A DNA stretch of 41,994 bases from a virus: positions 1-41,994 of the IMG/VR virus record IMGVR_UViG_3300046096_000342. One strand, written 5' to 3'. The position numbers and the translations under genes are program-made. The notes beneath the pieces were generated by a model that was given only the letters and a program-made list of their open reading frames with translations, was not told where the DNA came from and did no database searches. This document shows positions 139 to 14,885 of this stretch, piece by piece (within the stretch, counting starts at the first letter, position 1; the number at the start of each line of letters is the position of its first letter).

Positions 139-561
139 TCAGTACAACCCCGTGAGATCTGGCTTGACATAGTCGGGGCCTTTGTCAATCTTTCCGGTTG
201 GTGTGAAGACTGGCTGACCATCCACAAACTTGGACCAATTGGATGCATTGACGCGGGCACAGGCCTCGGTCACATCCATGCCGGCACAGTGGCCCACGCC
301 GGCCGCAGTCACGATCTGATCGGCCAGGCTGTCCAGCAGCTCGTTGCGGTCGGCAATCAGTGGGCGAATCTCTCCGGACTTGAGTGCATAGGCTAGTGAT
401 TTAACGGCTGCCAATGCATTGGATATGCGGGCGTCGTTCATGGCGAGTGCTTCGAGCATCTCTCCACACTCCTCGAAATGCACGCCAATTTGAACCCCTA
501 GATTTACATGGGTTGGGTTGGGCCTGGCACGGCGGTGCCACTCTGTTATTTGATCGATCAT
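139..561 (-). CDS. MazG-like nucleotide pyrophosphohydrolase
   Basis: 140 residues. The protein has the all-alpha NTP pyrophosphohydrolase pattern: an EECGE (EExxE-like) metal-binding helix near residue 31, then DSLADQIVTAAGVG near residue 76, matching the second (E/D)xxD metal motif. The C-terminal NASNWSKF / GKIDKGPDY segment is typical of phage members. The family hydrolyses (d)NTPs or related nucleotides to monophosphate and pyrophosphate, and in phages probably cleans or rebalances nucleotide pools. The start overlaps the previous gene's TGA by four bases, with an AGGAG ribosome site just upstream. Substrate cannot be read from sequence. Confidence 0.85.
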   Translation of the reverse strand: MIDQITEWHRRARPNPTHVNLGVQIGVHFEECGEMLEALAMNDARISNALAAVKSLAYALKSGEIRPLIADRNELLDSLADQIVTAAGVGHCAGMDVTEACARVNASNWSKFVDGQPVFTPTGKIDKGPDYVKPDLTGLY

Positions 562-12664: not shown

Positions 12665-13351
12665 ATGCATGAAACTGCTGAACTTGCGCCGCTGCGGCGG
12701 AAGAATCTCCTGAAATGGATGGCAGACAACGGGCTAAGCCGCACAGACCTGGCCAACCGGCTAGGTGTAGGGAGGGCTTACGTTTCCCTATTGTTCAAAC
12801 CCGACCGGTACTTTGGCGAAAAGAGTGCCAGGTCTATGGAGAAGAAGCTGCACCTACCAACGGGATACCTGGACTCGGATGGTCCCGAGGCGCCCATTTC
12901 TGTGGCCGAGTGGGAGACACCTTCTGAATTGCCGGATGGCATGTTTGCCATGGTGCCCCGGGTGTCTGTGCAATTAGCTGCTGGCGCTGGCCAGGTGCCA
13001 GACGCCGAGAGCAAGCTACCACCCCTGGCCTTTCGCAAGAATTGGCTGAATAAGAAGCTGGTGACCTCACGCAAGAACCTGCGCATTGCCGGGGTAACGG
13101 GCGATAGCATGGCCCCGTTTATCCAGGACGGTGACATTGTCTTGATTGACGTGGGCCAGCAGGATCTGCAGGAGATGCAGGTGTACGCCATCAACTACGG
13201 TGGCGAGGTGCGCATCAAGCGCTTGGCCCGCCGGTTTGATGGTGGCCTGCGCATTGCGTCGGACAACCCCGCGTATCCAGAGGAGTCGCTATCACCTGGT
13301 GAGGCTGAGCATGTCAGCATTCTGGGTAGGATGCTCTGGAGGGCCGGGTAG
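12665..13351 (+). CDS. CI-like S24 repressor
   Basis: 228 residues. An N-terminal helix-turn-helix (SRTDLANRLGVGRAYVSLLF, residues 25-44) is joined to a LexA/S24 autopeptidase. The cleavage region is VQLAAGAGQ (about 103-110), the nucleophile is Ser148 in GDSMAPF and the general base is Lys185 in VRIKRL. RecA filaments formed on DNA damage would trigger self-cleavage and prophage induction. It is the likely binder of the 16-base operators found at early promoters throughout the window. Confidence 0.93.
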   Translation: MHETAELAPLRRKNLLKWMADNGLSRTDLANRLGVGRAYVSLLFKPDRYFGEKSARSMEKKLHLPTGYLDSDGPEAPISVAEWETPSELPDGMFAMVPRVSVQLAAGAGQVPDAESKLPPLAFRKNWLNKKLVTSRKNLRIAGVTGDSMAPFIQDGDIVLIDVGQQDLQEMQVYAINYGGEVRIKRLARRFDGGLRIASDNPAYPEESLSPGEAEHVSILGRMLWRAG

Positions 13352-13558
13352 CAACTGGCCCATGAGTGAATGCGACTCAACCCGCAAGGCAATGTATTTC
13401 ATGACCAGCTCTGGGGCGCCCGTCTTTTCCCACCGTGCATAGTTTCTCAGGGAAGTACACAGCTCTTGCGCCATGCGCTCCTGAGTCAGCTTGAGGCTCA
13501 CGCAGCGCGCGATCTTCAGGGGCAAGGTGTTATTCGTGGGGGAAGCTGTTGCGGACAT
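13292..13558 (-). CDS. Small XRE-type HTH protein
   Basis: 88 residues. LKLTQERMAQELCTSLRNYA and RWEKTGAPELVMKYIAL fit a short XRE helix-turn-helix of the type that recognises 'TQE.mA..L..S.r.. .wE.G', often seen in prophage and restriction-linked regulators. The last 60 bases run into the 3' end of the repressor gene on the other strand, so the two transcripts are antisense to each other there. It closes the 13.3-19 kb leftward operon. Confidence 0.72.
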   Translation of the reverse strand: MSATASPTNNTLPLKIARCVSLKLTQERMAQELCTSLRNYARWEKTGAPELVMKYIALRVESHSLMGQLLPGPPEHPTQNADMLSLTR

Positions 13559-13856
13559 ATTGAAGTCTTTCTCGCTCTGCGAGCGTGGCGGCTAAAAAGC
13601 ACAGCCAAAGGTTTTGGGTATGGGAACTGGGGTAAACAGCGCCCGGGGCCGGTGTGCCCTGGTGGTGGATGTTCCAGCCGTTGTCCTTGAGGTACTGGTG
13701 GAAGGCGGAGCGGATGGGTGTATCGCGCTCCAGGTTCTCCAGGTCCGCAACTATGCGGGCCTTGCGATCTTCCGCAGCCCTGGCAAGGCGTTGCTCGCGA
13801 GTTAGGCCGTGGAGTGGGTCGGGTCCGAAGTCTGGGTAGGGATCTTCGATGGGCAT
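13530..13856 (-). CDS. Phage protein, unknown
   Basis: 108 residues from ATG at 13856-13854. It has an acidic Pro-rich start (MPIEDPYPDFGPDPLHGLT), a helical middle and a C-terminal TQNLWLCFLAATLAERERL helix of a kind common in small Burkholderiales phage proteins. It overlaps the deacetylase gene by 55 bases and the next HTH gene by 29. No function known. Confidence 0.65.
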   Translation of the reverse strand: MPIEDPYPDFGPDPLHGLTREQRLARAAEDRKARIVADLENLERDTPIRSAFHQYLKDNGWNIHHQGTPAPGAVYPSSHTQNLWLCFLAATLAERERLQYVRNSFPHE

Positions 13857-14737
13857 GCGGCCTCCTTGAAAAAGTGTTTGCGGATAGGGATGCTGGCCTC
13901 GGCTGCGCGGATGGTGTCTAGGTGAATGCGCAGGACGGGGTCGGTGTGGATGGTGCCACCTGGGTTTGCCTGATAGCCACCGGCAAGGTTGAAACAAATT
14001 GGGGCGCGGGTGCCATCGAATACGGCTTTATCACGGTGATAAATTTCCGCACTGGTAAGTAGGCCGCCCAGCGGGTCATTGATATGTGGGTCAGCACCAG
14101 CCTGGTAGAGCACGACGTCTGGCTGAAAGTCGTTGAGCTTGCGGATCTGATTGGTCAGCCAAATCGCGAACTGCTTGCCATCATCACCAGGTTCAAAGTA
14201 GGGGCCCTGGGTGATGTGCTTGACCTGGCCTTGGAGGGCGTCATGCTTGGCGAGGATGGCTTGTGTGCCATCGCCTGTGTGCATGTCGCAATCCAAAATG
14301 CCTATTCTGATGCCTGGGTTCTCGCGAATGAGGATGGCCGATACCACCGCCAGGCCGTTGAACGTGCAGAAGCCCCCTCCATACGATGCGTGCGCATGGT
14401 GAAACCCAGAGGTGGGCGAGAGTACGGGAATGGGAGGGTTGGCGATGGCGTAGCGCGCCGCGGCCAGTAGGCTGCCGATGGTCCACAGGCATGCCTCAGG
14501 CACCCGGGGGTCATTGTTCTCAAAGCCGTTTAGTACGACGCGAGAGAAGATGCCATCGATGTAGCCTGGGGTATGGACCAGGGCCAGGTCTGCACGGGTG
14601 ATGGGCTCGAAGGACGAGACATTATCAAAGCCATAGCGTGCAGCCAGCGCAACCAGGCGCTCGGGCTTGCCGGCGCTGGGGCTATAGCTTTCAATGCCCG
14701 CCACACTTTGGCGTTGGTCGTAGAAAATTTTGGTCAT
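13802..14737 (-). CDS. Histone deacetylase-family hydrolase (HDAC / acetylpolyamine amidohydrolase)
   Basis: 311 residues from ATG at 14737-14735. All active-site parts of the HDAC arginase fold are present: the His pair at 113-114 (SGFHHAHASYGGGFCTFN), zinc ligands Asp151 and His153 in ILDCDMHTGDGTQ, the third ligand Asp221 in GADPHINDPLGG, and the catalytic Tyr255 in LAGGYQ. Length fits bacterial class-II-like enzymes. The family removes acetyl or acyl groups from lysines, polyamines or related amines. A lytic or lysogenic phage could use it on host proteins, polyamines or an acetylation-based defence; the substrate is unknown. It lies in an operon of small accessory genes. Confidence 0.9.
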   Translation of the reverse strand: MTKIFYDQRQSVAGIESYSPSAGKPERLVALAARYGFDNVSSFEPITRADLALVHTPGYIDGIFSRVVLNGFENNDPRVPEACLWTIGSLLAAARYAIANPPIPVLSPTSGFHHAHASYGGGFCTFNGLAVVSAILIRENPGIRIGILDCDMHTGDGTQAILAKHDALQGQVKHITQGPYFEPGDDGKQFAIWLTNQIRKLNDFQPDVVLYQAGADPHINDPLGGLLTSAEIYHRDKAVFDGTRAPICFNLAGGYQANPGGTIHTDPVLRIHLDTIRAAEASIPIRKHFFKEAACPSKIPTQTSDPTHSTA

Positions 14738-14741
14738 GGTG

Positions 14742-14885
14742 TTACCGGTTGAGCTTAAAGGAAAGTACCGCCAGAACGGCCGCAAAGGCCAGGCAGTGGT
14801 ACTGGTGGGGGTTGGCATCGTTGACGCCCGCAAGCACCAGCGCAATGGCCGCCACGGCCAGGAGATCAGACGTGGCTTGCTTCAT
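14742..14885 (-). CDS. 47-residue membrane protein
   Basis: Starts at ATG 14885-14883 (MKQATSDLLAVAAIALVLAG) and contains two hydrophobic segments (about 8-20 and 31-44), predicting a two-span inner-membrane protein. It ends five bases before the deacetylase ATG and overlaps the preceding gene by 20 bases. The longer upstream frame looks non-coding. Function unknown. Confidence 0.6.
   Translation of the reverse strand: MKQATSDLLAVAAIALVLAGVNDANPHQYHCLAFAAVLAVLSFKLNR

What the first reader, a model, noticed from the sequence alone, without database searches (positions are those of the whole stretch)
13802..14737. Phage-encoded HDAC-family deacetylase with intact active site
His113/114, Asp151, His153, Asp221 and Tyr255 are all present, so the enzyme should be active. 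Deacetylases are rare in phages. In a lysogen-controlled operon of small accessory genes it may act as a counter-defence (for example reversing acetylation of proteins or tRNA by GNAT toxins), a host-takeover tool acting on acetylated proteins, or a polyamine deacetylase aiding DNA packaging.
Basis: partly seen in the sequence, partly recalled or inferred. Interest (0 to 1): 0.8.

Follow-up and report, generated by a model that had tools for sequence, protein, structure and literature searches.

The report
Phage zinc deacylase of HDAC superfamily
This phage carries an apparently working zinc enzyme related to histone deacetylases, one of a large, previously unlisted family of phage enzymes that look more like fatty-acyl removers than acetyl removers and that in other phages sit inside gene sets for making altered DNA building blocks.

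Summary
The gene is real. It lies on the minus strand (14737 to 13802, 311 aa), matches Pfam Hist_deacetyl (1.5e-30), and gives an AlphaFold2 model of pLDDT 93.5 with the HDAC fold. His113, His114, Asp151, His153 and Tyr255 are catalytic. The enzyme is not an isolated oddity. It belongs to a diverse clade mostly on uncultivated phage contigs (53 IMG/VR loci in one scan), absent from PHROGs. All 66 aligned members keep the active site, and close pairs show dN/dS of about 0.05-0.2. The nearest solved structures are V. cholerae HdaH (de-decanoylase) and Leptospira HDAC11. The foot pocket reads TSGFHH rather than RPPxHH, and Leu replaces the HDAC10 gatekeeper Glu. This makes a polyamine deacetylase unlikely and favours removal of acyl groups longer than acetyl. 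CI control, GNAT-toxin reversal and counter-defence are unsupported. The substrate is not shown. An unexpected link: relatives occupy a fixed place in the 2-aminoadenine operon (Pol-PurZ-MazZ-DatZ-zinc ribbon-HDAC) in 43 of 45 zinc-ribbon-bearing Z-type phage contigs, and follow MazG, thymidylate synthase and dCMP deaminase genes elsewhere. The window record itself lacks PurZ.

The parts
13802..14737 (-). HDAC-superfamily Zn-dependent acyl-amine hydrolase, 311 aa, ATG at 14737, stop at 13804-13802
   Evidence: PF00850 1.5e-30; AF2 model pLDDT 93.5; best PDB folds VcHdaH Z 35.3 and Leptospira HDAC11 Z 34.4; catalytic core invariant in 66/66
14396..14413 (-). foot-pocket motif T109-S-G-F112-H113-H114: catalytic His pair and Phe gatekeeper; replaces the RPPxHH of acetyl-specific enzymes
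   Evidence: translation; alignment; motif meaning from PMC11532494 and PMC13325672
14279..14293 (-). D149-C-D151-M-H153: DxDxH motif with two of the three zinc ligands (D151, H153)
14071..14092 (-). D216 (third zinc ligand) to D221-P-L223: Leu223 stands where HDAC10 has its gatekeeper Glu
   Evidence: gatekeeper described in PMC11532494; placement of Leu223 is by sequence alignment
13973..13984 (-). A252-G-G-Y255: catalytic tyrosine motif
13530..13856 (-). small helical protein (108 aa) directly downstream, overlapping the HDAC 3' end by 55 nt, with AAGGAGG before its ATG; found only beside this HDAC (4 of 4 hits)
13292..13558 (-). HTH-like protein (weak PF01381, below cut-off), conserved beside the HDAC in L004, L005 and L006
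12665..13351 (+). CI-like repressor (S24/UmuD-like C-terminus), convergent with the HDAC operon
   Evidence: phrog_4, 8.1e-38
14742..14885 (-). possible 47-aa hydrophobic ORF ending 4 nt before the HDAC start (possible translational coupling)
   Evidence: sequence; no relative tested

Best explanation
The gene encodes an active, Zn2+-dependent acyl-amine hydrolase of the HDAC (arginase/deacetylase) superfamily that works like class IV / 'cluster 5' deacylases. D151, H153 and D216 hold zinc, the metal-activated water attacks the acyl carbonyl with H113/H114 as acid/base, and Y255 polarises the carbonyl. An open foot pocket (TSGFHH, AGGY) probably accepts acyl groups longer than acetyl. Inferred, not shown: the phage uses it during infection to strip acyl groups from lysines of host or phage enzymes, or from a small acyl-amine, so as to reset metabolism for phage DNA synthesis. 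Shown: fold, intact catalytic residues, conservation, purifying selection, stable place in a phage lineage. Inferred: acyl preference, protein substrate, timing, benefit.
For: PF00850; pLDDT 93.5; VcHdaH with decanoic acid (Z 35.3) and Leptospira HDAC11 with dodecenoic acid (Z 34.4) stand clear of all acetyl-type HDACs and APAHs (Z 30.4 or less); profile-to-PDB top match is also VcHdaH. The RPPxHH motif of robust deacetylases is absent, as in VcHdaH (SGGYHH) and HDAC11 (GGGFHH); the Phe gatekeeper needed for HDAC11 clade B activity is present; Leu rather than Glu at the HDAC10 gatekeeper position. Catalytic residues invariant in 66/66 clade members and in 43/43 Z-phage relatives; dN/dS 0.05-0.20 in close pairs; conserved placement next to CI in the window lineage. 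Relatives in dNTP-metabolism operons.
Against: No activity was measured. The HPFD motif of active HDAC11 clade B is absent (SPSA here). Clade A HDAC11s lack detectable deacylase activity on peptides, and their small-molecule substrates are unknown (PMC13325672), so a protein substrate is not assured. Identity to the nearest solved enzyme is only 20-27 percent, too low to carry over an acyl preference.
Confidence: 0.5

Rival explanations
1. Nucleotide-pathway enzyme: the phage clade hydrolyses an acylated nucleotide, nucleoside or cofactor, or deacylates an enzyme of dNTP synthesis, and was co-opted for building phage genomes.
For: Fixed order Pol-PurZ-MazZ-DatZ-Zn ribbon-HDAC in 43 of 45 PurZ contigs that carry the ribbon, with PurZ, DatZ and MazZ confirmed by PDB matches to PurZ, DatZ and MazZ; MazG - thymidylate synthase - dCMP deaminase - HDAC in a sister group; dCMP deaminase 1.2 kb downstream in L031.
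Against: The window record has no PurZ and its HDAC sits by CI, not by nucleotide genes; the known Z pathway is complete without an amidohydrolase; other relatives lie beside tail, ligase or RtcB-like genes. Operon neighbours in one lineage can be co-inherited without sharing a pathway.
Confidence: 0.2
2. Acetylpolyamine amidohydrolase that frees spermidine from N-acetylspermidine for phage growth, as giant-virus APAHs do.
For: Same superfamily; APAH structures are among the fold matches at Z about 29.5; functional viral APAHs exist (PMC9992855).
Against: No RPPGHH motif, which cluster 4 enzymes have, and no Glu at the HDAC10-type gatekeeper position; structurally nearer to VcHdaH/HDAC11 by about 5 Z.
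Confidence: 0.1
3. Counter-defence enzyme that reverses protein or tRNA acylation by a host toxin or defence system.
For: Lies among small accessory genes near the immunity region, a common place for such genes (general knowledge).
Against: No defence or GNAT link: PADLOC scan empty, GNAT in 2 of 44 HDAC contigs. The clade's spread over unrelated contexts does not point to one defence system.
Confidence: 0.1
4. Passenger: a captured bacterial metabolic gene with no selected role in the phage.
For: Bacterial chromosomes (Myxococcota, Verrucomicrobiota, Methylococcaceae MAGs) hold clade members.
Against: Purifying selection, 66/66 intact active sites, and long residence in one phage lineage with a shared position.
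Confidence: 0.07

Closest known systems
Vibrio cholerae HdaH (cluster 5b lysine de-decanoylase; PDB 9gky, 9gkv)
   Same: Best structural match (Z 35.3, rmsd 1.9 over 271 residues) and best profile match; non-RPP foot-pocket motif; GGY with catalytic Tyr; shared 'xRDr' helix
   Different: About 23 percent identity; S/TSGFHH instead of SGGYHH; Thr or Tyr in place of the second His of HHG; phage-borne
Leptospira interrogans HDAC11 / class IV clade B (PDB 9gz5)
   Same: Second-best fold (Z 34.4, 27 percent identity); Phe gatekeeper before HH; similar length
   Different: Lacks the HPFD loop-1 motif (SPSA instead)
Acetylpolyamine amidohydrolases (cluster 4; giant-virus APAHs of PMC9992855)
   Same: Superfamily, zinc site, viral carriage
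   Different: No RPPGHH motif; lower structural similarity
Rhodococcus phage E3 gp202, Microbacterium phage Magritte gp204, megaphage LR7565xx proteins
   Same: Phage-encoded Hist_deacetyl proteins of the same broad branch
   Different: 25-35 percent identity, long branches, unrelated neighbours
Pseudomonas phage Y10 HDAC (L071)
   Same: Phage-encoded HDAC
   Different: RPPGHH canonical type grouping with bacterial HDACs: a separate acquisition

Membership tests
HDAC superfamily (PF00850) | Profile match above curated cut-off | tested here: met
   107 bits against cut-off 27.9
HDAC superfamily (PF00850) | His pair, Asp-His-Asp zinc ligands, catalytic Tyr | tested here: met
   H113/H114, D151/H153/D216, Y255; 66/66 conserved
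HDAC superfamily (PF00850) | Zn-dependent deacylase activity | not testable with these tools
   needs an assay
Class IV (HDAC11) / cluster 5 deacylases | Closest fold among solved HDACs | tested here: met
   VcHdaH and liHDAC11 Z 35.3 and 34.4, next 30.4
Class IV (HDAC11) / cluster 5 deacylases | No RPPxHH; Gly-rich foot-pocket motif with XGGY | tested here: met
   TSGFHH and AGGY (motif definitions in PMC11532494)
Class IV (HDAC11) / cluster 5 deacylases | Phe/Tyr foot-pocket gatekeeper (clade B) | tested here: met
   F112, at least 90 percent conserved in A2; PMC13325672
HDAC11 clade B proper | HPFD motif in loop 1 | tested here: not met
   loop 1 reads ...SFSPSAGKP-type; so it is not filed as an HDAC11 clade B member
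HDAC11 clade B proper | Acidic residue equivalent to Glu94 in loop 2 | tested here: inconclusive
   E73 or D76 may correspond, but loop 2 could not be aligned reliably
Acetylpolyamine amidohydrolase (cluster 4) | RPPGHH motif | tested here: not met
   PTSGFHH
Acetylpolyamine amidohydrolase (cluster 4) | Head-to-head dimer through an extended L2 loop | not tested
   no multimer prediction run
HDAC10-type polyamine deacetylase | Glu gatekeeper (PEG motif) | tested here: not met
   P222-L223-G224, placed by sequence alignment
Z-genome (2-aminoadenine) gene cluster | PurZ in the same genome | tested here: not met
   no PF00709 match in the 41,994-base window record; met for L030, L033-L035, L045-L047, L050, L051, L058

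The most novel reading that the evidence does not exclude
Phages carry a distinct clade of class IV-like HDAC deacylases, undescribed in the databases and papers searched, that works in dNTP and genome-base-substitution programmes and is a standing, overlooked component of the 2-aminoadenine (Z-genome) operon; the window enzyme would be a version used in a temperate-like, non-Z phage lineage.
Probability: 0.25. Interest if true: 0.8.

Novelty: new variant of a known kind. Interest (0 to 1): 0.52.

Why it matters
Acylation control by phages is poorly known: sirtuins and one GNAT (Rac) have been discussed, and viral polyamine amidohydrolases were found in giant viruses. A widespread phage clade of HDAC-type deacylases, with intact active sites and class IV-like pockets, would add a zinc-based way for phages to alter host protein acylation. 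Its fixed place behind DatZ in Z-genome phages makes a concrete question testable: what does an amide hydrolase do for phages that replace adenine by 2-aminoadenine?

Tried and rejected
PHROGs: no family for the protein or for any of 42 relatives. NCBIfam: only one spurious weak match among 42. PADLOC: nothing. Rfam: nothing in the window. GNAT partner: PF00583 in 2 of 44 contigs. CI control: no operator-like repeat shared between the CI/Cro gap and other places, and no promoter excess over shuffles. Integrase: no PF00589 match in the window record, so temperate life rests on the CI/Cro-like genes only (the record may be a fragment). BFVD viral fold search: only giant-virus HDACs and one 113-residue phage fragment. 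Downstream ORF: no match in 50,697 phage records, predicted three-helix protein (pLDDT 78), not searched further. Papers: no mention of a phage HDAC clade found; two Z-genome papers searched do not mention a deacetylase.

Full report
Observation. The reading frame runs from ATG at 14737 to the stop at 13802 on the minus strand (311 aa); the plus strand of the same span is closed by several stops. Pfam places it in Hist_deacetyl at 1.5e-30. D221 belongs to the following DPLGG motif and is also invariant. The second His of the usual HHG is Thr154 here and mostly Tyr in relatives.

Relatives. Among 50,697 phage records only 10 matched at E up to 1e-5, all below 36 percent identity, including Rhodococcus phage E3 gp202 and megaphages. 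IMG/VR gave three loci at 52-57 percent identity and 53 loci with a small alignment; 12 loci came from GTDB genomes. The patterns used favour sequences with GG[FY]CTFN or ILDCDM, so the counts are lower bounds, and conservation of those short words is partly by selection. The catalytic residues outside those words (H113, H114, H153, D216, Y255) are invariant in all 66 aligned proteins. Close pairs have dN/dS of 0.05-0.20. No PHROG family matched any of 42 members.

Tree. A quick tree (SH-aLRT only) puts the window in a starred clade with five other IMG/VR phages and two betaproteobacterial MAG contigs, inside a larger starred branch of phage and MAG sequences separate from the RPP-type bacterial HDACs of the same genomes. 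Several deep joins are weak and some long branches meet, so order within the clade should not be trusted. Pseudomonas phage Y10 carries an RPP-type HDAC instead and is a separate case.

Neighbourhood. In the window lineage the order HDAC - small ORF - (HTH) - CI on the opposite strand - Cro recurs in L003, L004 and L005, with partial versions in L006 and L008. The small downstream ORF was found only beside this HDAC (4 of 4 contigs). The HDAC operon is read toward the 3' end of CI, so it is not driven from the CI/Cro gap; no shared operator was found. The 'lysogen-controlled' claim is therefore unproven. No integrase matched in the window record.

Structure and likely chemistry. The AlphaFold2 model is confident (pLDDT 93.5, pTM 0.90). 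V. cholerae HdaH with decanoic acid (Z 35.3) and Leptospira HDAC11 with dodecenoic acid (Z 34.4) stand about five Z above HdaH/KDAC, APAH and HDAC6 structures. Graf et al. (PMC11532494) tie RPPxHH to acetyl-only activity and a Gly-rich motif in its place to longer acyl chains; the window has TSGFHH and AGGY. The HDAC11 study (PMC13325672) finds that a Phe gatekeeper is needed for clade B activity; F112 fits. The HPFD loop of clade B is missing (SPSA), so I call it class IV-like and do not file it as HDAC11. The polyamine reading is weakened by the missing RPP motif and by Leu223 in place of the HDAC10 Glu. All of this is inference from sequence and model; no substrate is shown.

A lead outside the window. 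One subgroup of relatives lies directly behind PurZ, MazZ, DatZ and a NrdR-like zinc ribbon, whose identities were checked against PDB entries named PurZ, DatZ and MazZ. A scan with PurZ gave 56 contigs. Of the 45 that have the zinc ribbon, 43 have the HDAC in the same order; none of the seven that lack the ribbon and have enough sequence do; four are truncated. The 43 HDACs form 19 clusters at 90 percent identity, go down to 44 percent pairwise identity, and all keep the active site. A sister group has MazG - (small gene) - thymidylate synthase - dCMP deaminase - HDAC. This may be co-inheritance within lineages or a real functional link; no background rate of such neighbours was computed. The window record itself has no PurZ.

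Verdict. A real, almost certainly functional enzyme of a known superfamily, in a phage clade that the searched databases do not list, with class IV-like features.

Noticed in passing
L094-L149 (PurZ contigs), e.g. L035:2383-5831: An HDAC-like deacylase gene is a near-constant member of the 2-aminoadenine operon: Pol-PurZ-MazZ-DatZ-zinc ribbon-HDAC in 43 of 45 ribbon-bearing contigs, 0 of 7 without the ribbon.
   Followed up: partly
L052, L053, L055, L056: HDAC follows a MazG - thymidylate synthase - dCMP deaminase module in a sister group (the MazG and deaminase clusters were recovered in L052, L055 and L056).
   Followed up: partly
window 13530-13856: A small three-helix protein overlapping the HDAC 3' end occurs only next to this HDAC (4 of 4 IMG/VR hits); possible partner.
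   Followed up: partly
L071 (Pseudomonas phage Y10, about 46.0-46.6 kb of OQ572411.1): A canonical RPPGHH-type HDAC in an otherwise unannotated P. aeruginosa phage; separate acquisition.
   Followed up: partly
L062, L066, L070: In Myxococcota MAGs the clade member sits about 0.9 kb from a divergent LysR-type regulator, suggesting a regulated metabolic role in bacteria.
   Followed up: no
L091 (LR756511.1): The megaphage HDAC-like gene matches in two pieces and its longest ORF is only 172 aa; possibly frameshifted or a sequencing error.
   Followed up: no
window 139-561: MazG-like nucleotide pyrophosphohydrolase (phrog_671, 1.4e-29), far from the HDAC.
   Followed up: no
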